NCBI GenBank assembly: GCA_963576475.1
Contig: OY754969.1
Coordinates: forward strand, 31,174,226-31,238,225
DNA length: 64,000 bases
Origin: Molanna angustata
Lineage: Eukaryota > Arthropoda > Insecta > Trichoptera > Molannidae
Direction: 5' to 3'
This document shows positions 15,741 to 58,822 of this stretch, piece by piece. Under the pieces are notes generated by a model. The model worked only from the letters and a program-made list of their open reading frames with translations. It searched no databases and was not told the DNA's origin. Positions within the stretch are counted from its first letter, which is position 1; each line of letters opens with the position of its first letter. The translations under genes were made by a program, and so were the position numbers.

Positions 15741-15941
15741 TTATCGGGCAACTAACAGGCACAAATATTAATTTGACACGCACCCAATAACAATTTGCCA
15801 CATTCTGGAGACTTACGATATTAATCGTCTCACAGATCCAGACTGAAAACACAATTAAAAACTGTGTCTCCACCGGGAATCGAACCCGGGACCTTTGGAT
15901 CAGCAGTCAGATACCTAACCAACTGAGCCACGAAGGCCGAC
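15741..15941 (-). mobile_element. tRNA-derived SINE S1, full length
   Basis: Read on the minus strand from 15941: GTCGGCCTTCGTGGCTCAGT (A-box-like), an anticodon-arm-like middle, then CCCGGGTTCGATTCCCGG (T arm and B box), GGAGACACAGTTTTTAATTG, TCAGTCTGGATCTGTGAGAC and AAGTCTCCAGAATGTGGCAA. The 3' end near 15745 is followed by an (AAAAT)n-like tail. The tRNA head has lost cloverleaf pairing at the acceptor stem, so it is a retroposon and not a tRNA gene. It is the best-preserved S1 copy with 49343-49582. Confidence 0.9.
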
Positions 15942-32741: not shown

Positions 32742-33660
32742 GTTACACAGGCCTAATGCCTAATTCGCGGGAAACTTAAGATGGCCTATTTTGACGTTTG
32801 GACATTCATGAAGTTCTTTATATGCTTATTGCCTAATTGATGGTAAATATTTAGTAAATTAATTATAGTATTGAGAGCTAAATGTGGGGGAACAAATACT
32901 GTACTTCATTGTAAACGCATACTTAATAAAATACACTTTCTGTGTCTCGCATTGCCAAATTTAACTACTTGTTTCTCGTTTATATTCGCGTGGGACGAAA
33001 ACAAATACCTCAGTAGGTATTTTTTTCGACGTGTTTGTACATTTAGGGACCGCACAACACTTATGCACTTTTGAATTTATTTTAAATACACAAATCGTCT
33101 TAGAATTCATATAGTACATATAGTAGTGATATGCGGTCTACGAAACCGTGACGTCACCGTCAGCTCCGACGGACGCCATTACACTGCAAGCGTTTTTTGA
33201 CGTAAATGTCAAATTGGATTTTGAAATGGCAATTTTTGCTACTAAACCTTTATTTTATGTTGAAATGTATATATATTTGAAAACAGTGGATGCGTAAAAA
33301 CATCGTGAGATAGTTTCTCAAAATTAGTCATCATGCCTATTCTATACTAGTGGAGAGTAAAAAACGTTCCCATACAGAAGCTATTTTACTTATGTTATAT
33401 TATAGATCTACAGTTTGCATACAAATATATAATTTCGCACTTAATATAAGATCATGATTTTTTTTCTGTAAAGGTTGACAATCCCTGAATCCATTGTATC
33501 AAAAAATCAAACAAAATAAAAATATCTCTATTTTCGAGACCATGAGAGCATTTTGAAAATATTGACAGGTGAAATCACAGAGGAGAATTTATCGGATAGG
33601 TGTACCTATATGGAAAATTAATAAGCTCAAAGATTATGGACCTTACATCATATATTATAT
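32742..33660. other. Spacer
   Basis: No gene supported. A TGACGTCA palindrome occurs at 33149-33156 beside CCGTCAGCTCCGACGG, which can form a short hairpin. A 67-codon frame at 32871-33074 has no recognisable feature. Confidence 0.35.
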
Positions 33661-34085
33661 CAATATGAAGTAAATCGAACCTCTATAGTTTGGGCTGTAG
33701 AGAAGACATAAAAAAAAACAACGTAAATGATGCGCTAGGTCTCTAAATCAACTCTGTCTATGCACTTTACACGGTATGACGTAAATATAAAGTCGATCGG
33801 ACTTATAGTTTGGGCTGTGTAGAGAAGACATAAAAAAAACAACGTAAATGATGCGCTAGGTCTCTAAATCAACTCTGTCTATGCACTTTACACGGTATGA
33901 CGTAAAAATAAAGTCGATCGGACTTATAGTTTGGGCTGTGTAGAGAAGACATAAAAAAAACAACGTAAATGATGCGCTAGGTCTCTAAATCAACTCTGTC
34001 TATGCACTTTAAACGGTATGACGTAAATATAAAGTCGATCGGACTTATAGTTTGGGCTGTAGAGAGGACACATAAAAGATACGGC
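33661..34085. repeat. 121-bp tandem repeat, three full units plus ends
   Basis: TTTGGGCTGT occurs at 33689, 33809, 33930 and 34051, giving 120, 121 and 121 bp spacing. Units are nearly identical (GATGCGCTAGGTCTCTAAAT, CTATGCACTTTACACGGTAT). No coding frame. Differences are limited to the A-run length and a few substitutions. Confidence 0.93.
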
Positions 34086-36737: not shown

Positions 36738-36741
36738 GTAT
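36738..36741. repeat. Gypsy target-site duplication (GTAT), left
   Basis: GTAT directly precedes the LTR here and directly follows the other LTR at 42642-42645. A 4-bp duplication is usual for many Ty3/Gypsy integrases. Confidence 0.9.
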
Positions 36742-36941
36742 TGTAACGAAATTTATATTTATTTATTTTATTATGGTTCAAAGTCTTATTTATTTTTACA
36801 ATTTATATTTTTACAAGGTTTGTCTAGTTTTTCCAACTCACTACCCAAATCTTTTGTTTTCATTTTTCTTGGGTTCTTATTTTCAAAATATTTCTATTTA
36901 AATTTTCAATTTAAATAGAAATAGTACTTAATTTCATAACA
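36742..36941 (-). repeat. 3' LTR, 200 bp
   Basis: On the element strand it runs TGTTATGAAATTAAG ... TTTCGTTACA, that is 5'-TGTT...TACA-3'. It is identical base for base to 42442-42641. AATAAA words near its end could serve as a polyadenylation signal. A perfect 15-bp stem (ATTTCTATTTAAATT and inverse, 3-nt loop) lies at 36890-36922. Confidence 0.97.
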
Positions 36942-36953
36942 CTGCCTCCCTCT
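36942..36953 (-). other. Polypurine tract
   Basis: Minus-strand AGAGGGAGGCAG directly abuts the 3' LTR and starts at the pol stop codon. This is the expected plus-strand primer of LTR retrotransposons. Confidence 0.85.
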
Positions 36954-39900
36954 TAGTTCAGTTCGTCCCGAACAGAATTCTCTAGATGAATAAATCGGCA
37001 TTTTGAACCTTCTCTACAGTGAGATGCTTTGAAAAAGTAACATGGTACACTTTTTTTTATATTTTTACTGTATCTTGGATTATAGCAGCAAACTAGAACA
37101 TTAATTCCAGTATTATGAAAAATCTCTTCTATCATATTCCGAACCACTTTCCAATCCATACCATCACTGATCTTTGGAATGCCGAGCTTCATAAGATTCA
37201 ACTGTAACATTTGATCCCGCATACTTCGTAGACAGTTCCACATCTGAGCATACTCTGCTCGTTCCTCAGACGTTTCCTTATTCGTCATGTAGAATAAATG
37301 CTGTTTTCCATGCTGTGAATGGACCGCTTCTCCAATCTTCAGATTCTTGGCTTTTAGCTCATATAACATCCCATACTTTCTCATGATAACTTTGGCTATA
37401 CCACTAGTCATCTTCATGTCTTGAGCCACACAGTAAGCTAAAACATTATCTTCTGGGATATCGAAGAGGTCTTGCTCAATTTCCACAGTCACACCATGGC
37501 GAGTGCGTCGATAAGGAGTCATCATGAATTCCTCGAAGGTCTTTTCTTCACTTTGGACATTGCAAACTTGAGCAACTGGATTTTTTTCCTCATCCTTGTT
37601 ATCACCTAAAAAGGGAGCCAGGCGATTGAAATGTACCACTCTTGGCTTCCCATTTGGTTTTCTTCGTATACGATAAACCACATCATTAATCCTTTTGATC
37701 ACTTCATACGGTCCTTCCCAGGATTTCTGAAGCTTTGGTGAGTAGCCTCGTCGTCGTTGTGGATTAAATAACCAAACCAAGTCTCCAGCCTGATAACCAC
37801 CTTCCACAGCTTTAATGTCGTATCGCTCCTTCATCTTCTCACTAGCTACTTGAATATTGGACCGTACACGGTCATGTATAGCATTCATTTTCCTCCGAAG
37901 ATCTGACACATAATCTTCTCCAACTAGATCTTCTCCAGGCTTAGATCCATACTGCAGGTCGCAAGGTAACCGTAACTCACGGCCAAAAATCACACTTGCC
38001 GGTGTTTGCCCTGTTGTCTCATGAATTGCTGCTCGATAAGCTAATAAGAACAAGTGGATGTATTCGTCCCAATCCTTCTGGTGATCGGACACTGCTTTTG
38101 ACAAAAATCTTCCAATTGTTCGATTCATTCGCTCCACCATTCCATCCGACTGTGGATGCAAAGCAGTTGTTCTCGTCTTTCGAATTCCTAATGCTTCACA
38201 AATTCCCTGGAATACGGCTGATTCAAAGTTTCTTCCCTGGTCCGAGTGTAACTCCAATGGTACTCCAAAACGACTTATCAGTTCCCTTACCAAGACTTCA
38301 GCAACAGTGGTAGCTTCTTGATTCGGTAGTGCATAGGCTTCTGTCCATTTACTAAAATAGTCCATTGCTACCAGAATATATTTATTCCCTCTTTCCGTTG
38401 TGGGAAACGGCCCCGCTATGTCAATGGCTATCCTTTCAAATGGGCTACCAACATTATACTGCCTCATTGGCGCACGCCTTCGTTTCTGAGGTCCGTTTGA
38501 AGTGGCACAAGTTACACATCTTCTACACCAATCTTTTACATCTCCATTGTAATTGACCCAATAAAAACGTTGACGAATTTTTTCTGTGGTTTTTTTAACT
38601 CCCAAGTGTCCCCCAGACACATCATTGTGAAGCAGTTTAAGAACTTCAGGAATTCTCTTCCTTGGAATCAATAGTTGTTGTCTCTGCTGTGTTCCATCTT
38701 CATTCTCCAATACACGCTTTAACAACCCATTTTCCACGACAATGGATTGCCACTGAGCCCAGTATGACTTAATATTTGGAGATAGTGAAGCTATTTCTTC
38801 CCATAAAGGTCTTTGATCATTTTCCTTCCACTGCATTACAAACTTGAGATCTGGGTCTTCCAATTGGTCTGCTCGTATTTCATCATCTTGCCAAAACTTG
38901 TCAACGACCGTGGTTCTACAAGCTATAAAAAACTTTTCCTCAGCCTTATTACAGTGCTGGCAATCCTCTGGACATGGTCGCCTTGACAGTGCATCGGCAT
39001 TTCTATGATGAAGTCCGGCTCGATGTTCAGAATCATAGTCATATTCTTGCAATCTCTCTATCCATCTTGCCACTTGACCTTCAGGATTCTTGAATCGCAA
39101 AAGCCACACAAGTGCCGAGTGATCTGTCCTTAAAAGAAATTTCCGTCCATATAAATACTTGCGAAAGTGCTCAACTGACTTGATAACAGCAAGCAATTCT
39201 CTTCGTGTTACACAGTAATTGCGTTCTGGTTTCGACAATACTTTACTGAAGTAAGCAATCACGCGTTCTGCCCCATCTTGTACTTGGGAGAGCACACTTC
39301 CGATACCAACGTTACTTGCATCTGTATCCAGAATAAACATTCCTTCAGCTCGAGGATAACTCAAAACCGGAGAATTAATTAGAACCTGTTTTAATTCTTC
39401 AAATGCATGTTGGCACTTGAAATCCCATATGAATTCACTGCTTTCCTCCGTGAGTTTTGTCAGTGGCTTTGCGATGTCAGCAAAGCCTGGAACAAATCGT
39501 CGATAGTAGGTACTCAGACCCAAAAAGCTTCTTACTTCATGTTTGTCTTTAAGTACTGGCCAATCTCGAACAGCTTTAATCTTCTCAGGATCTACTGCTA
39601 CTCCCTCCTCAGAGACAACATGACCTAGATAGTTGACTTGCTTTCGGAACAATATACATTTCTTGCAATTGAGTTTAAGGTTGGCCGACCTCAATCGTGA
39701 AAATACCTGTTCCAAATTTCCTAAATGTTCTTCAAAACGCTTCCCAAGTACGATGATGTCATCTAAGTATACCAAACAGGTCTCCCACGATAATCCTCTT
39801 AGCACACTTTCCATTAGTCGTTCAAACGTAGCCGGTGCATTGCAAAGTCCAAATGGCATCACTTTGAATTGCCACAATCCACTTCCAACAGAAAACGCCG

Positions 39901-41128
39901 TTTTTTCTCTATCCTTGGGTTCCAATCCAACCTGCCAATAACCACTCTTTAGATCCAAAGTTGAGAAGATCTTACAACCAGCCAATGTATCTAGGGTGTC
40001 ATCGATTCGAGGCAGTGGATAACTATCCTTCTTAGTTACATTATTCAATAAGCGAAAGTCCACACAGAACCGAGTTGAGCCATCTTTTTTTTTAACTAAC
40101 ACTACTGGTGAACACCATGGGCTGCTTGATGGTTCAATAACGCTATCCCTTTCCATGTCTTGAATAATTTGATCTGCTTCCGCCCGCTTTGCTAATGGTA
40201 GCCTTCTAGGTAATTGGCGGATAGGCCTTGCGTCACCCGTATCTATTTGATGTTGAACAACATTGGTTCTTCCTTTAGAAAGACTCGCATTCTCAAAAAC
40301 ATCTTGATAATGAGCAATGAGGTATCTAATTTGTTTGCTTTGTTCTTTGGTAAGTTCCTTACAAGCATCTTTTACAAAGTCTTCAAGATGTTTTGGTACA
40401 TCCTCTGAAGAAACTTGTGCGATGCAGGCATTTTGTGTTACTGAGGAAACTGATGAACACACACTTAAATAAGCTCCTTTTTTGACAGTTACTGGATATT
40501 CATTTATGTTCATTAATCTGACTAAAATTTCCTTTTGGTTTTGAATCAGTGCTCTTGCAATTAATACTCCTTTTCCTGCTTCATTGTTGGCGTTGGACTC
40601 CACAACCAAAACATGTCCATTCGGGATAACACAGTCTAAATTGACTCGTACTAACATCTCACTTTGTTTTGGAATAGTTACAACATCCGCTGCAAGAACA
40701 CGTGTAGAAAATTCCTCACGCTCTTGCACGAGAACATCTTCATCTCCAATTTTCAAAGATCGCCTCTTTAGATCCAACTGGAATCCATATTTCGCCATTA
40801 TGTCCATTCCGAGAATAACTTCCTCCTCTATATTCGCCACTAGCACCTGATAATCGAAGATAGAACTACCAATTTGAAAGTTGGCATATGTCTCACCACA
40901 TATAGATGCCGACTCCCCAGTAGCTGTTCGTAATGTCCATTTAGTTGGTGTAATACACTTTTTATTATAAAGCAAATCTGGTCTCATGATTGTCATCGTT
41001 GCTCCAGTATCCAGCAAAAGTTTCAAATTCTTTCCATTTACTTTGCCATTTATAAACATACTGGTATCTCGACCACTGAATGATGCAACAACTGCAGATC
41101 TCTTTGAGGCATTGGTAATGTAGGTCAA
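36953..41128 (-). CDS. Gypsy Pol polyprotein: protease, RT, RNase H, integrase, macrodomain, CCCH finger
   Basis: 1391 codons shown from a TTG at 41128; the same frame is open upstream to 41191, overlapping gag, so it is probably made as Gag-Pol by a -1 shift. Aspartic protease: DTGA at 40-43. Reverse transcriptase about 290-520 with YLDD at 454-457. RNase H with DTDAS 601-605, E644 and D669. Integrase zinc region H834, H841, C871, C874; catalytic D903, D963, E999; GPY at 1139-1141. Then about 1211-1350 is a macrodomain with MTSGIA 1240-1245, K1284 and D1325, and C1363, C1371, C1377, H1381 form a CCCH finger. No internal stop. Function: copies element RNA and integrates the cDNA; the extra domains suggest ADP-ribose removal or binding (inference). 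Confidence 0.96.
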   Translation of the reverse strand: MTYITNASKRSAVVASFSGRDTSMFINGKVNGKNLKLLLDTGATMTIMRPDLLYNKKCITPTKWTLRTATGESASICGETYANFQIGSSIFDYQVLVANIEEEVILGMDIMAKYGFQLDLKRRSLKIGDEDVLVQEREEFSTRVLAADVVTIPKQSEMLVRVNLDCVIPNGHVLVVESNANNEAGKGVLIARALIQNQKEILVRLMNINEYPVTVKKGAYLSVCSSVSSVTQNACIAQVSSEDVPKHLEDFVKDACKELTKEQSKQIRYLIAHYQDVFENASLSKGRTNVVQHQIDTGDARPIRQLPRRLPLAKRAEADQIIQDMERDSVIEPSSSPWCSPVVLVKKKDGSTRFCVDFRLLNNVTKKDSYPLPRIDDTLDTLAGCKIFSTLDLKSGYWQVGLEPKDREKTAFSVGSGLWQFKVMPFGLCNAPATFERLMESVLRGLSWETCLVYLDDIIVLGKRFEEHLGNLEQVFSRLRSANLKLNCKKCILFRKQVNYLGHVVSEEGVAVDPEKIKAVRDWPVLKDKHEVRSFLGLSTYYRRFVPGFADIAKPLTKLTEESSEFIWDFKCQHAFEELKQVLINSPVLSYPRAEGMFILDTDASNVGIGSVLSQVQDGAERVIAYFSKVLSKPERNYCVTRRELLAVIKSVEHFRKYLYGRKFLLRTDHSALVWLLRFKNPEGQVARWIERLQEYDYDSEHRAGLHHRNADALSRRPCPEDCQHCNKAEEKFFIACRTTVVDKFWQDDEIRADQLEDPDLKFVMQWKENDQRPLWEEIASLSPNIKSYWAQWQSIVVENGLLKRVLENEDGTQQRQQLLIPRKRIPEVLKLLHNDVSGGHLGVKKTTEKIRQRFYWVNYNGDVKDWCRRCVTCATSNGPQKRRRAPMRQYNVGSPFERIAIDIAGPFPTTERGNKYILVAMDYFSKWTEAYALPNQEATTVAEVLVRELISRFGVPLELHSDQGRNFESAVFQGICEALGIRKTRTTALHPQSDGMVERMNRTIGRFLSKAVSDHQKDWDEYIHLFLLAYRAAIHETTGQTPASVIFGRELRLPCDLQYGSKPGEDLVGEDYVSDLRRKMNAIHDRVRSNIQVASEKMKERYDIKAVEGGYQAGDLVWLFNPQRRRGYSPKLQKSWEGPYEVIKRINDVVYRIRRKPNGKPRVVHFNRLAPFLGDNKDEEKNPVAQVCNVQSEEKTFEEFMMTPYRRTRHGVTVEIEQDLFDIPEDNVLAYCVAQDMKMTSGIAKVIMRKYGMLYELKAKNLKIGEAVHSQHGKQHLFYMTNKETSEERAEYAQMWNCLRSMRDQMLQLNLMKLGIPKISDGMDWKVVRNMIEEIFHNTGINVLVCCYNPRYSKNIKKSVPCYFFKASHCREGSKCRFIHLENSVRDELN
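36986..37042 (-). other. CCCH zinc finger at the C-terminus of Pol
   Basis: Pol residues 1363-1381 give C-x7-C-x5-C-x3-H, the exact spacing class of CCCH (C3H1) fingers, with an aromatic and basic context (CYFFK, KCRFIH). Such fingers usually bind RNA. It is ten residues from the protein end and has no usual counterpart in Ty3/Gypsy Pol. Confidence 0.75.
37079..37498 (-). other. Macrodomain (OARD1/TARG1-like) within Pol
   Basis: Pol residues about 1211-1350. The string VTVEIEQDLF fits the first strand and the Asp that contacts adenine in macrodomains; LAYCVAQDMKMTSGIA fits the ADP-ribose binding loop; FYMTNKE places Lys1284 at the catalytic Lys of the TARG1 type; and PKISDGMDWKVVRNMIEEIF places Asp1325 at its catalytic Asp, with the conserved Gly1323 and MIEE helix. 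Length (about 140 residues) matches a whole domain. It occupies the position where chromoviruses carry a chromodomain. Assignment is by recalled family pattern, not by search. Confidence 0.82.
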
Positions 41129-41154
41129 CAGTTGCCCCTTCCCATCAACCCTTT

Positions 41155-41191
41155 TTAGTTTTCCTGTGGCTGTTGCTGTTGCGTTGTTGCT
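41155..41191 (-). promoter_or_regulatory. Gag-Pol overlap, candidate -1 frameshift site
   Basis: The pol frame is open from 41191 and gag stops at 41155-41157. The heptamer GGAAAAC (41158-41164) sits directly before the gag TAA and resembles -1 slippery sites, though it does not match X-XXY-YYZ perfectly. No ATG begins pol near the overlap, which favours frameshifting. No stimulatory structure was worked out. Confidence 0.55.
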
Positions 41192-42354
41192 TCATTTGGA
41201 CACCGATTACGTAGATGTCCAGCTCGTCCACAACCCCAGCAGCGAAACTGTCTTTTTCTTCCTTGCAATGCCTTCATCACCTTTTCGACAATGCATTCGA
41301 TGAGTTTTTGATTCTCTTCAACGGCCTCAACAACGCGGGCTTGAGCATGACCTCGTAAAGATTTTTTTATAGATTCAAATTCGAGTGCCTGGGTTAGAGC
41401 GTCACTCAAAGTTTGTGGTCTAGCTAGTTTTACAGCTTGTTGTGTCTCATTTGCCCACAATCCATCCAAGAACTTTTCTACTGCAAGGCTTTCACACACA
41501 TCATCAGGAACCGTAGGGTATGCATATCTAATTAGACGCGCTATATCCGCCTCAAATTCCTGGAGAGTTTCATTAGATTTCTGATTACGATTCTTAAGTT
41601 GTGACCTGTAAAACTGTTCCATGTGCTTATGTCCAAATCGCATCTCAAGTCTCTCAATCAACAATTTTAAATCTCGTCGCTCAGCTAGAGGAATTGTCTC
41701 CAAAACTTTTAAAGCATCACCTCGTAATGATACACTCAACACTGAGGCCTTTCTTGTCATGGACCAGCCATTTATCATGGCCACTGTCTCGAACAATGTT
41801 AAATATTCTTCCCAGGGGCATTTTCCATCAAAGGTTGGCATATCATTTCGCACGCACTCCACTGTTGGTACTCTTGTATCTTCTACACACTTAAAATTTG
41901 TATCTACAGCTGAATTTTGCTCGGAATTCATTGGCGTGATTGAAGGAAGCACTTGATTCTCCAAAACTTTCATCTGTTTAGTTAATTCATTTATCTTCTC
42001 ATCAAAGGTCATAGAATAATTCTGGAATTTCTTTTCTATAGTATTTGAATGCTTTTGAAGCATCGCTACTTCTCCTTTGATTTCTTTAATTTCTCCTTTT
42101 ATATCTCTGGAATGTTCTTGAAACTTCTCTTCTATGTCTCTGGAATGTTCTTTTAAGACTTGACAAAGATCGTTGTTAGAGCAAGGCATTTCAAAAAGGT
42201 ATTTGTCTGGATCCTCACCTACTTCTTGCATCACTTTTCTCAATCGTAGTTGAAGTGCATTTTTATTTCCTGATGTATCAGCGTCTCTCTCCTCCAACTC
42301 ATGTTTTAAATCAACCACTTTCAACTCTAAAAGAGTTATTTTTTTTGATGCCAT
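41155..42354 (-). CDS. Gypsy Gag with SAP domain and zinc knuckle
   Basis: 399 codons, ATG at 42354, 87 bp after the 5' LTR. Residues about 8-42 (LELKVVDLKHELEERDADTS then NALQLRLRKV) fit a SAP DNA-binding motif. Residues 62-135 are a heptad-rich coiled coil with repeated EHSRDI. About 171-330 is the capsid-like retrotransposon gag region (FDGKCPWEEYLTLFE to LSDALTQALEFE). C372-x2-C375-x4-H380-x4-C385 is a CCHC zinc knuckle, preceded by basic residues, and the tail is Gln-rich. Gag packages element RNA into particles. Pol lies in the -1 frame and overlaps the last 37 nt. No stop or shift inside. Confidence 0.95.
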   Translation of the reverse strand: MASKKITLLELKVVDLKHELEERDADTSGNKNALQLRLRKVMQEVGEDPDKYLFEMPCSNNDLCQVLKEHSRDIEEKFQEHSRDIKGEIKEIKGEVAMLQKHSNTIEKKFQNYSMTFDEKINELTKQMKVLENQVLPSITPMNSEQNSAVDTNFKCVEDTRVPTVECVRNDMPTFDGKCPWEEYLTLFETVAMINGWSMTRKASVLSVSLRGDALKVLETIPLAERRDLKLLIERLEMRFGHKHMEQFYRSQLKNRNQKSNETLQEFEADIARLIRYAYPTVPDDVCESLAVEKFLDGLWANETQQAVKLARPQTLSDALTQALEFESIKKSLRGHAQARVVEAVEENQKLIECIVEKVMKALQGRKRQFRCWGCGRAGHLRNRCPNEATTQQQQPQEN

Positions 42355-42421
42355 AATAAATGTCTTTATAAATAACTATTTTATTTTTTTCTTACACAAA
42401 AAAATACTTGGGTATTTTTAT

Positions 42422-42439
42422 ACCCCACACCTGACACCA
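42422..42439 (-). other. Primer binding site, tRNA-Leu-like
   Basis: Minus-strand TGGTGTCAGGTGTGGGGT begins 2 nt after the 5' LTR. It begins with TGG (complement of tRNA CCA) and resembles the complement of a eukaryotic tRNA-Leu 3' end with about one or two differences. The tRNA species is an inference from memory of tRNA-Leu consensus. Confidence 0.7.
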
Positions 42440-42441
42440 AA

Positions 42442-42641
42442 TGTAACGAAATTTATATTTATTTATTTTATTATGGTTCAAAGTCTTATTTATTTTTACA
42501 ATTTATATTTTTACAAGGTTTGTCTAGTTTTTCCAACTCACTACCCAAATCTTTTGTTTTCATTTTTCTTGGGTTCTTATTTTCAAAATATTTCTATTTA
42601 AATTTTCAATTTAAATAGAAATAGTACTTAATTTCATAACA
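42442..42641 (-). repeat. 5' LTR, 200 bp
   Basis: Identical to 36742-36941. It should hold the element promoter; A/T-rich tracts make a single TATA box uncertain. The transcription start and R/U5 border cannot be read directly. Confidence 0.97.
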
Positions 42642-43500
42642 GTATGTATAAAGAATATGTACTTACCAAACTATGAATCCATGAACCAAATTATTGAATA
42701 GTTTAAGATATTTTGTTTTCCATACAAAACATGTAGGTATGTCAGGATAGAATAGTCCTTTTCATACCCAGAATATGAAAACAGCATGTTGGTATATACA
42801 AACATATTATGTATGTTTGGAGATTGAGTATCAAACTATTGAGAGTCCCCGTTGATATTGTGTCGTTGTTGGGGTTTGAGGAGTCAGCCTTTCTGGTTTG
42901 CCTATAAATATATAAATATGTATGTCCCCACCAAACAGATTGAGTTCCCTAGCACCTCCGTCTAAAAATATCTTGTAATCAGGGGGGCAAGTCTGGTCCA
43001 ACTGGCGATATCAATCCTCGTGATTACCCATATCATTGATATAATTATTATATGGAGTTCTCCATATAATAATTATATCCATGATATGGGTAATCGTGAG
43101 GGTTTTGATTTCGCCAGTTGGACCAGATTTGCCCCCCAGAACACGCATTATTATTTAACTCCACTAAATCGGTACCTAGTCTCAATATGACTCAAATACC
43201 TAAATCGTCATTAAATTAAATTTTTACAATAAGTTTGAGATGTACTACTATAATGTACATTTTTTTACACAAAATTTCATTACCTAGTTTAGGTATTTCG
43301 GCGTTTTTCGATATTTTCAAATAATTTGGAAATATAGGCAGTTAAACAATTTATCACGGAAACAATATTTTTGTTAGTAAAAAATGTTTGAGAAACTCTG
43401 GAAATTTAAAAAAAAATATTTGAGATTTTGTATATTTCTACCAATATTCAGCGTGGTTTTTGATGTCTATGGAAAAATAAAGTAAAAATTCAAAAGTAAA
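42642..43500 (-). mobile_element. R1 repeat family, copy D, interrupted
   Basis: GTATGTATAAAG...ACTTACCAAACTATGAATCC, CCCAGAATATGAAAACAGCA and, further right, GATATTTTCAAATAATTTGGA and AAAAATGTTTGAGAAACTCT follow the order of copy B. The Gypsy element splits its left end, and a hairpin MITE (42982-43137) is inserted inside. The right end is lost near 43500, where RTE-like sequence starts. Confidence 0.8.
42982..43137. mobile_element. Hairpin MITE, GGGGGGCAAG family, copy 1
   Basis: Starts GGGGGGCAAGTCTGGTCCAA and ends with the inverse; two arms of about 77 bp (including GATTACCCATATCAT and ATATAATTATTATATGG) leave almost no loop. RNA from either strand would form one long hairpin. No target duplication is obvious. 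It lies within R1 copy D. Confidence 0.92.
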
Positions 43501-56739: not shown

Positions 56740-58822
56740 TGATTGTGTGCAAAATTTTCCGTCTTACCACTCAACACACCAACTATGCTCAACATGCAAC
56801 AATGTACAGAATCTGTAATACATATAATAGGCATTTCCAAGAGATTGACATATTCTTACTTCATCGTCATAAATTCACATCTTTCTGTATATGACTGGTC
56901 TTTCTTAAAACATTGTGATGATGTAGACACAGCAACCGAAGAATTCTATACTTCGATAAATAGTATAATTAAATCTCACGTCCCTGCAAAATTATTAAAA
57001 ACGATAATTTTCCAGTTTGGTTTTCACCTCCACTGAAGAAAATTTACAAAGAAAAACTTAAAGTGCATAAAAGATGGAAAATATACAATAACCCAATAGA
57101 CTATGCCGAATTCACACTGCTTCGATCCCGTCTAAAGAGGGTTCAAAAAGATTGCTATGATCAATACATTACCGCTGTTCAAAATGACATACATAATAAC
57201 CACAAAAAACTATGGACATATAAAAATAGCAAAAGTCAAAACAAACAAATACCTCAAACAATGTTTTTGGACGGCAGATCCGGTAGCGGTGGAACAAAAG
57301 TCAGTCAAATGTTCTCCGAATATTTTAATTCTGTATTCGAAACAACACCTTATCATAATACCGCAACAATCAATCTCGGTGATAACATCACGTCATACAA
57401 CGACTTTGAAGGAATAGGGCATTTAGCAACTAACGAAACAGAAGTCTGCAATTACCTTAAAAAAATTGACACAAAGAAAGGTTGTGGTAATGATGGAATA
57501 CCACCATCTTTCATCCAAAAATGTGCGCAATACCTTGCAAGTCCAATAACCACGATATTTAATAGGTCTTTCTCGGAAAACACGTTTCCTCAAAAATTAA
57601 AAGAAGCATTAATTATCCCTATTCATAAATCCGGACCAAAAAATAATATAAAAAATTATCGCCCGATATCAATTTTATCTACAATAAGTAAAATTTTTGA
57701 ACGCATAGTGTATGATCGGATTTATCCTATTATAGTAAAAAAAATCCCAAGCCAACAACATGGTTTTTTAAAACATCGATCTGTATTATCTAATCTACTT
57801 ATCTACAATGAATTTATTTCTCGTAATATGGATGATAAAAACCAAGTGGATGCGATATATACAGATTACTCTAAAGCCTTTGATAAAGTAAATCACTTAA
57901 CACTAATTAAAAAGCTTGAGGAAGTTGGAATCCATGGTGACCTACTCAGATGGTTTAAATCGTATATTACCAAAAGATTACAATCTGTAGTAATTGAAGG
58001 CTTTAAATCAAACTTCACATTAGCCCCCTCAGGAGTTCCGCAGGGCTCTATATTGGGACCGTTACTATTTAATGCTTACATTTATGATATTTACAAATGT
58101 TTCAAACATTCCCAATTTATAGCCTACGCGGATGACATGAAAATTTATAAATCCATACGTTCACTTTCCGAATGTCACGAACTTCAAGACGACCTAAATA
58201 GACTCCTTGCATATTGTCTTGTAAATAGATTGCAATTGAACACCTCAAAATGTTTTAAAATTACATTTACACGAAATAGACAGAAAATCTACTATAACTA
58301 CACAATCGATGATAACATACTTACAACTGTTGACAAAATTAAAGATTTAGGAGTTATCTTCGATTCGAAGCTCACATTTAACGCACATATAGACGCAATA
58401 ATTGACAAAGCTTTTAAAATGCTCGGATTCATAGCACGCTTATCGAAACCTTTTTACAATACTCAAACTCTTCTTGTTTTGTATACAACCTACATAAGAC
58501 CGATTCTGGAACATTGCACCCCGATCTGGTCTCCTTTTTATAACATACATATAAATAGAATAGAAAGAGTACAAAAAAGTACCTTAAAACCGTCAACTAC
58601 AAATCACACCTTCATTTTCTTAACTACACAGAATCCAGGAAATTTCACGGCCTTGAATCACTCGAGAACCGAAGAACTCATAACGACCTATCACTTCTTC
58701 ATAAAATAGTTAATAATTTTTTTTATGCTCCCCAAATAATAAGTAATATACTGTTTCATGTGCCAGGTAGAACAAGCAGACACTCAAATCTATTTCATAT
58801 TCCACACTGTAGCACTGTATAT
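56740..58822 (+). pseudogene. Jockey/CR1-type LINE reverse transcriptase, broken by two frameshifts
   Basis: A linker region (CDDVDTATEEFYTSINSIIK at about 56910-56970) shifts frame near 57010-57015 into the main frame. The 548-codon frame 57063-58709 holds the RT: NYRPISILSTISKIFE (199-214), FLKHRSVLSNLL, DYSKAFDKV with Asp268, PSGVPQGSILGPLLFNAYI and AYADD at 354-358, so the catalytic residues are intact. Near 58576 it shifts again; the other frame continues to about 58822 with the NYTESRKFHGLESLENRRTH, HKIVNNFF and FHIPHCSTVY segments. The endonuclease domain and the extreme C-terminus are missing. It could not make the whole protein. Confidence 0.92.

What the first reader, a model, noticed from the sequence alone, without database searches (positions are those of the whole stretch)
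37079..37498. ADP-ribosyl-hydrolase-like macrodomain fused to a Gypsy integrase
Seen: about 140 residues beyond the integrase GPY/F module read as a complete macrodomain of the OARD1/TARG1 type, including the MTSGIA loop, Lys1284 in FYMTNKE, Gly1323 and Asp1325 in SDGMD, and an MIEE helix. Known: the TARG1 type removes ADP-ribose from acidic residues using a Lys and an Asp at these positions. Inference: an active hydrolase travels with the integrase. It could undo PARP modification at integration nicks, read ADP-ribosylated chromatin for target choice in the way chromodomains do in chromoviruses, or blunt a host response. The frame is intact in a very young copy, so the domain is probably under use. 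I know of no described Ty3/Gypsy element with this architecture, but I cannot search.
Basis: partly seen in the sequence, partly recalled or inferred. Interest (0 to 1): 0.93.

Follow-up and report, generated by a model that had tools for sequence, protein, structure and literature searches.

The report
Jumping gene carrying ADP-ribose eraser
A young, many-copy retrotransposon, probably of a beetle, carries at the end of its integrase a domain of the same family as the cellular enzyme TARG1, followed by a zinc finger, and since most of its relatives keep TARG1's catalytic residues, these jumping genes likely carry a tool predicted to strip the host's ADP-ribose marks from their own nucleic acids or proteins.

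The parts
36742..42641 (-). complete LTR retrotransposon (Ty3/Gypsy), 5900 bp
   Evidence: LTR pair, flanking 4-bp duplication, domains
36742..36941 (-). 3' LTR (TG...CA)
   Evidence: 200/200 nt identical to the other LTR
42442..42641 (-). 5' LTR
36738..36741 (.). target-site duplication GTAT
   Evidence: read
42642..42645 (.). target-site duplication GTAT
   Evidence: read
42423..42439 (-). primer-binding site TGGTGTCAGGTGTGGGG beside the 5' LTR; tRNA-Leu-like by recall, not tested
   Evidence: sequence
36942..36952 (-). polypurine tract GAGGGAGGCAG next to the 3' LTR
   Evidence: sequence
41155..42354 (-). gag ORF, 399 aa, with a CCHC knuckle near its end
42235..42324 (-). SAP domain at the Gag N-terminus
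   Evidence: PF02037 E 1e-7
36953..41128 (-). pol ORF, 1391 codons from a TTG; frame open from 41191, so it overlaps the end of gag in the -1 frame
40796..41053 (-). aspartic protease
   Evidence: PF13975 E 3e-10
39617..40096 (-). reverse transcriptase
   Evidence: PF00078 E 2e-37
39041..39325 (-). RNase H
   Evidence: PF17917 E 3.2e-33
38495..38668 (-). integrase H2C2 zinc-binding domain
   Evidence: PF17921 E 1.5e-19
38159..38422 (-). integrase core (rve)
   Evidence: PF00665 E 3.5e-15
37613..37714 (-). integrase C-terminal p58/GPY-F-type module
   Evidence: PF22938 E 4.8e-14
37082..37495 (-). TARG1-type macrodomain
37277..37279 (-). Lys1284, equivalent of TARG1 Lys84
37163..37165 (-). Asp1322, equivalent of TARG1 Asp125 in the family alignments (Asp1325 in the pairwise one); the three-residue gap of the phosphate-binding loop lies just before it
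36986..37042 (-). CCCH zinc finger C-x7-C-x5-C-x3-H (borderline Pfam score)
   Evidence: PF00642 20.6 bits, cut-off 20.5; motif in 32 of 45 macrodomain-bearing homologs

Best explanation
This is a young Ty3/Gypsy LTR retrotransposon whose Pol protein continues beyond the integrase into a TARG1-family macrodomain and a CCCH zinc finger, a module that likely removes host-added ADP-ribose from the element's nucleic acid or integration complex. Shown: the architecture, its homology to TARG1, its restriction to one clade in which most members keep the catalytic Lys and Asp, and the youth and copy number of this family. Inferred: the module was captured once from a cellular TARG1-like gene; the zinc finger, predicted to bind RNA, keeps the macrodomain near element RNA, cDNA ends or the intasome; there it would reverse ADP-ribose that host PARP-type enzymes put on phosphorylated RNA or DNA ends or on acidic residues, so that reverse transcription and integration are not blocked. 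For the window's own copy, whose phosphate-binding loop is shortened, activity may be reduced or shifted towards binding only.
For: Identity: (family profile to TARG1 8e-47, next DarG 7e-9). Inheritance: 45 of 120 listed homologs carry the domain, each 25-36 residues behind the integrase match (45 of 45); integrase tree: 31 carriers and 3 non-carriers in one clade, SH-aLRT 99; RT tree: 19 carriers and 3 non-carriers, 99; the macrodomain tree repeats several of the same subgroups. Catalytic pair: 41 of 45 rows that reach both sites have Lys and Asp (the 47 rows less two truncated ones). TARG1's Asp20 and Gly43 are kept in 47 of 47. Zinc finger motif in 32 of 45 homologs. 150 scored copies, the window's included, share an identical 160-residue macrodomain piece without stops. 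Known biochemistry: TARG1's Lys84/Asp125 dyad (PMC9411070, passages); TARG1 and two viral macrodomains remove ADP-ribose from RNA ends (PMC6582358, abstract text and passages); TARG1 acts on nucleic-acid termini, and transposon RNA is suggested as a target of the mark (PMC7050489, passages).
Against: No activity was or could be tested. The window's domain lacks three residues of the phosphate-binding loop and differs at near-invariant sites. P0016, about 92% identical in RT and integrase, lacks the whole module; P0032 and P0033 lack it too; 13 of 45 carriers lack the zinc-finger motif, six of them grouped together, some others being truncated: the module is dispensable at least at times. In 4 of 45 rows Lys or Asp is replaced. 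The domain evolves faster than the integrase (window against P0003: 50% against 77% identity). No dN/dS was possible: copies in the genome are near-identical, and those fetched were picked by protein identity. Of 30 fetched copies, 13 have one or two gaps against the window in the 672-nt stretch from linker to stop, and 77 of the 150 copies do not have the window's 1412-codon frame, so many copies are broken somewhere in pol.
Confidence: 0.45

Rival explanations
1. Reader, not eraser: the macrodomain binds ADP-ribosylated chromatin or proteins at DNA breaks and steers integration there, as chromodomains are thought to do in chromoviruses (recalled).
For: Position directly behind the integrase in 45 of 45 homolog carriers; the ALC1-like class holds both readers and erasers (PMC7050489, passages); the window's shortened loop could leave binding without hydrolysis (inference).
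Against: The catalytic Lys/Asp pair is kept in 41 of 45 rows, which a pure reader would not need. Insertion sites were not analysed.
Confidence: 0.2
2. Captured cargo in decay: the module was useful in the clade's ancestor but is now drifting in the window's lineage, where it neither helps nor harms.
For: Three-residue loop gap and changed near-invariant sites; long branch of the window's macrodomain (0.75) against 0.042 in integrase and 0.077 in RT, although those short branches partly reflect that the module-less sister P0016 is in the integrase and RT trees only; that sister lacks the module.
Against: The 160-residue piece is open in all 150 scored copies, though these were ranked by similarity to the query; across the clade pocket columns are more conserved than the rest (entropy 0.65 against 1.5; column set chosen after I had seen conserved columns, window's copy not included).
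Confidence: 0.25
3. Assembly or annotation artefact joining a host gene to a transposon.
For: None found.
Against: Single open frame, 150 genomic copies of the piece, a 98% identical copy of integrase end plus module on a separate record (P0002), and 45 diverged homologs.
Confidence: 0.01

Closest known systems
TARG1/OARD1/C6orf130 (ALC1-like macrodomain class)
   Different: TARG1 is a stand-alone cellular enzyme; here the domain is a C-terminal part of a retrotransposon Pol with a CCCH finger; the window's copy has a shortened phosphate-binding loop.
DarG macrodomain (antitoxin of DarTG)
   Different: Bacterial; lacks the Lys/Asp pair according to the same passages; much weaker similarity.
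Macro-domain ORFs of epsilon-like endogenous retroviruses in ray-finned fish
   Same: A retroelement that carries a macro-domain protein (PMC4977317, one passage, citing Basta et al. 2009, which I did not see).
   Different: Described there as additional ORFs in retroviruses; here fused to the integrase of a Ty3/Gypsy element. Macrodomain class in the fish elements not checked.
Chromovirus integrases with a C-terminal chromodomain (recalled)
   Same: An accessory chromatin- or modification-related domain placed after the integrase GPY/F module.
   Different: No chromodomain hit here; the added domain belongs to an enzyme family rather than being a histone reader.
Macrodomains of alphaviruses and coronaviruses
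   Same: A parasite's own macrodomain; those of VEEV and SARS coronavirus reverse RNA ADP-ribosylation in vitro (PMC6582358, passages).

Membership tests
Ty3/Gypsy LTR retrotransposon | paired LTRs with short target-site duplication | tested here: met
   200/200 nt identical LTRs, GTAT duplication
Ty3/Gypsy LTR retrotransposon | Pol order protease, RT, RNase H, integrase | tested here: met
   Pfam on four pieces
Ty3/Gypsy LTR retrotransposon | tRNA-type primer-binding site and polypurine tract | tested here: inconclusive
   Both motifs are read; match to tRNA-Leu is recalled, not computed
TARG1/OARD1 (ALC1-like) macrodomain | sequence homology to TARG1 | tested here: met
   1e-17 single sequence; 8e-47 family profile
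TARG1/OARD1 (ALC1-like) macrodomain | TARG1 fold | tested here: met
TARG1/OARD1 (ALC1-like) macrodomain | catalytic Lys84 | tested here: met
   Lys1284; Lys in 43 of 47 rows, Arg in 3, one truncated
TARG1/OARD1 (ALC1-like) macrodomain | catalytic Asp125 | tested here: met
   An Asp in either alignment (Asp1322; Asp1325); Asp in 42 of 47 rows, Asn 2, Glu 1, two truncated
TARG1/OARD1 (ALC1-like) macrodomain | intact phosphate-binding loop (GCGL before Asp125) | tested here: not met
   Window and P0002 lack three residues, P0021 two; 42 of 45 rows have full length. This concerns the window's copy as an enzyme, not the clade
TARG1/OARD1 (ALC1-like) macrodomain | ADP-ribosylhydrolase activity | not testable with these tools
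   needs purified protein
Chromovirus | chromodomain after the integrase | tested here: not met
   no chromodomain among Pfam hits up to E 1
Errantivirus-like (env-bearing) Gypsy element | env ORF between pol and the 3' LTR | tested here: not met
   pol stops at 36953 and the LTR begins at 36941, so there is no room; of ORFs of 150 aa or more only gag and pol lie in the element
CCCH zinc-finger proteins | C-x7/8-C-x5-C-x3-H finger | tested here: met
   PF00642 20.6 bits, cut-off 20.5; 15 of 18 A1 members match at E <= 0.1, best 8.5e-7

The most novel reading that the evidence does not exclude
A clade of beetle retrotransposons captured a host TARG1-like ADP-ribosylhydrolase, welded it with an RNA-binding CCCH finger to its integrase, and uses it as its own counter-defence: insects ADP-ribosylate retrotransposon nucleic acid or integration complexes to restrict them, and these elements erase the mark. 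The pairing of CCCH finger and ADP-ribose eraser mirrors, in reverse, host antiviral PARPs that pair CCCH fingers with a PARP domain (recalled).
Probability: 0.3. Interest if true: 0.92.

Novelty: new variant of a known kind. Interest (0 to 1): 0.78.

Why it matters
Macrodomains of RNA viruses can reverse ADP-ribosylation (PMC6582358), but no LTR retrotransposon integrase with such a domain turned up in my paper searches. A whole clade with a mostly conserved catalytic pair makes it testable whether ADP-ribosylation restricts transposons in insects. The natural set of full-loop, short-loop, zinc-finger-less and module-less relatives is a ready comparison series.

Tried and rejected
Pfam Macro alone would have missed the window's copy (13.4 bits, cut-off 22). 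A search of long proteins with the macrodomain and finger region alone found nothing at E <= 0.001 among 235 candidates; the short piece found one 98% copy among 9 candidates; only the search with the integrase included reached the clade. That search ranks by a region that contains the macrodomain, so 45 of 120 is not a prevalence, and 2411 of its 2531 hits were not listed. IMG/VR scans with P0001 and A1 and a GTDB scan with A1 gave no relatives. The family search PF01661 in the own genome found three other macro matches, not this one; I did not study them. dN/dS was given up: 30 fetched copies differ from the window by 0-3 mismatches in about 672 nt, 13 of them also with 1-2 gaps; the 17 gap-free copies hold 2 synonymous and 6 non-synonymous variant codons against the window, too few and too selected to read. 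Alphavirus-type origin: lower in the fold list, not excluded by that. Several independent gains instead of one are not formally excluded: the starred branches force at least 2 (integrase) and 3 (RT) changes, the shortest history needs 4, both trees are quick ones without bootstrap, and no AU test was run. Paper searches for this architecture; open-access library only; I saw their listings and opened passages of seven papers, of which PMC11377751 and PMC10933786 were not used. The host TARG1 gene, which would test where the module came from, was not found because that request did not complete.

Full report
WHAT IS THERE. The finding lies on the minus strand. An element of 5900 bp spans 36742-42641, with LTRs that are identical over 200 of 200 nt, a 4-bp flanking duplication GTAT, a primer-binding site and a polypurine tract beside the LTRs. 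It holds a 399-aa gag with a SAP domain and a pol frame that overlaps the end of gag in the -1 frame. Scanned in pieces, pol shows protease, RT, RNase H, integrase H2C2, integrase core and the p58/GPY-F-type end module. The frame then continues for about 215 residues: a linker, a macrodomain (about 37082-37495), a CCCH zinc finger (36986-37042), and the end ENSVRDELN just before the polypurine tract.

A CLADE, NOT A FREAK. Of the 120 best homologs listed (of 2531), 45 carry the macrodomain, in each case 25-36 residues behind the end of the integrase match. Of the 120, 105 had enough integrase for a tree; the 15 dropped all carry the macrodomain. There, the 31 carriers (window included) and 3 non-carriers form one group with SH-aLRT 99; the shortest history needs four changes of state, that is one gain and three losses if the root lies outside. 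RT, with 77 of the 120 homologs, gives the same picture: 19 carriers (window included) and 3 non-carriers, 99. The macrodomain's own tree repeats several subgroups. Both larger trees are quick ones without bootstrap. Probable losses are visible: P0016, closest to the window (RT 92%, integrase 93%), ends in RDEQN directly after the integrase; P0032 keeps what looks like a stump of the zinc finger. The zinc-finger motif is present in 32 of the 45; six of the 13 without it group together, and of the other seven P0026, P0027 and P0028 stop before its end. The named carriers are Aromia, Callosobruchus (beetles), Harmonia, Diabrotica and Molorchus (beetles by recall), and two records of the powdery mildew Erysiphe pulchra, which I read as contamination because one of them groups with the Harmonia element. 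Twenty-two carriers bear no species name.

CONSERVATION. TARG1 uses Lys84 and Asp125 as a catalytic pair (PMC9411070, passages; PMC7050489, passages, which prints Glu125). Of 45 rows that reach both sites, 41 have both; the exceptions are P0019, P0021, P0024 and P0030. Asp20 and Gly43 are kept in 47 of 47 rows. Pocket columns have mean entropy 0.65 against 1.5 for all columns, p about 5e-5, but I picked that column set, partly from recall, after seeing conserved columns, so the test is not blind.

AGAINST AN ACTIVE ENZYME IN THIS COPY. The loop that reads GCGL before Asp125 in TARG1 and in many relatives is three residues shorter in the window and in P0002, two shorter in P0021; 42 of 45 rows have the full length. 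PMC5087735 (passages) calls the corresponding stretch of the related SCO6735 the phosphate-binding loop. In the family alignments the catalytic Asp is Asp1322; in the pairwise alignment it is Asp1325. The window's domain also departs at positions that the rest hardly vary. Either the pocket is altered, or a shorter loop still works; this needs protein.

YOUTH AND NUMBER. In the window's 995-Mb genome the first look gave 502 candidates, of which 150 were scored; all 150, the window's own included, encode the same 160 residues without stops. By my hand count 73 of the 150 lie in open frames of 1412 codons like the window's; the other 77 have other lengths, many of them short, so they are broken or altered elsewhere. 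Thirty fetched copies differ from the window by 0-3 mismatches in about 672 nt, and 13 of them also by 1-2 gaps. So the family expanded very recently with this domain on board. Since copies were ranked by protein similarity, this cannot show selection.

MECHANISM. I commit to the eraser reading. A catalytic pair kept across a diverged clade speaks for chemistry rather than mere binding. The fusion to the integrase would place the domain in the particle and at the integration site; the CCCH finger points to nucleic acid. TARG1 and two viral macrodomains remove ADP-ribose from RNA ends (PMC6582358, abstract text and passages), and a review suggests transposon or viral RNA as a target of that mark (PMC7050489, passages). 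Capture, substrate and benefit are inferred.

KNOWN OR NEW. The nearest precedent I found is one sentence on macro-domain ORFs in fish epsilon-like endogenous retroviruses (PMC4977317, passage). Nine paper searches listed no Ty3/Gypsy element with a macrodomain in their titles and abstract starts; only some listed papers were opened, and the library is open-access only. I rate it a new variant of a known kind.

Noticed in passing
42235-42324 (minus): The Gag N-terminus carries a SAP domain (E 1e-7); SAP is also listed for several Aromia gag-pol records of the same clade. A DNA-binding Gag domain in these elements may be of interest by itself.
   Followed up: partly
57063-58709 (plus): A 548-aa ORF with a reverse transcriptase domain (PF00078 E 2.8e-31), a separate retroelement.
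   Followed up: no
15865-15937 (minus): tRNA match in Rfam, 35.1 bits; gene or SINE-derived not decided.
   Followed up: no
33653-34082: Tandem array with a period of about 121 nt.
   Followed up: no
42964-43155: Nested imperfect inverted repeats just outside the element.
   Followed up: no
P0007, P0011 and P0053: Records named Erysiphe pulchra and a Rickettsia endosymbiont hold insect-type Gypsy proteins, probably host or insect contamination of those assemblies.
   Followed up: partly
L001-L003: Other macro-domain matches in the window's genome, possibly cellular genes.
   Followed up: no
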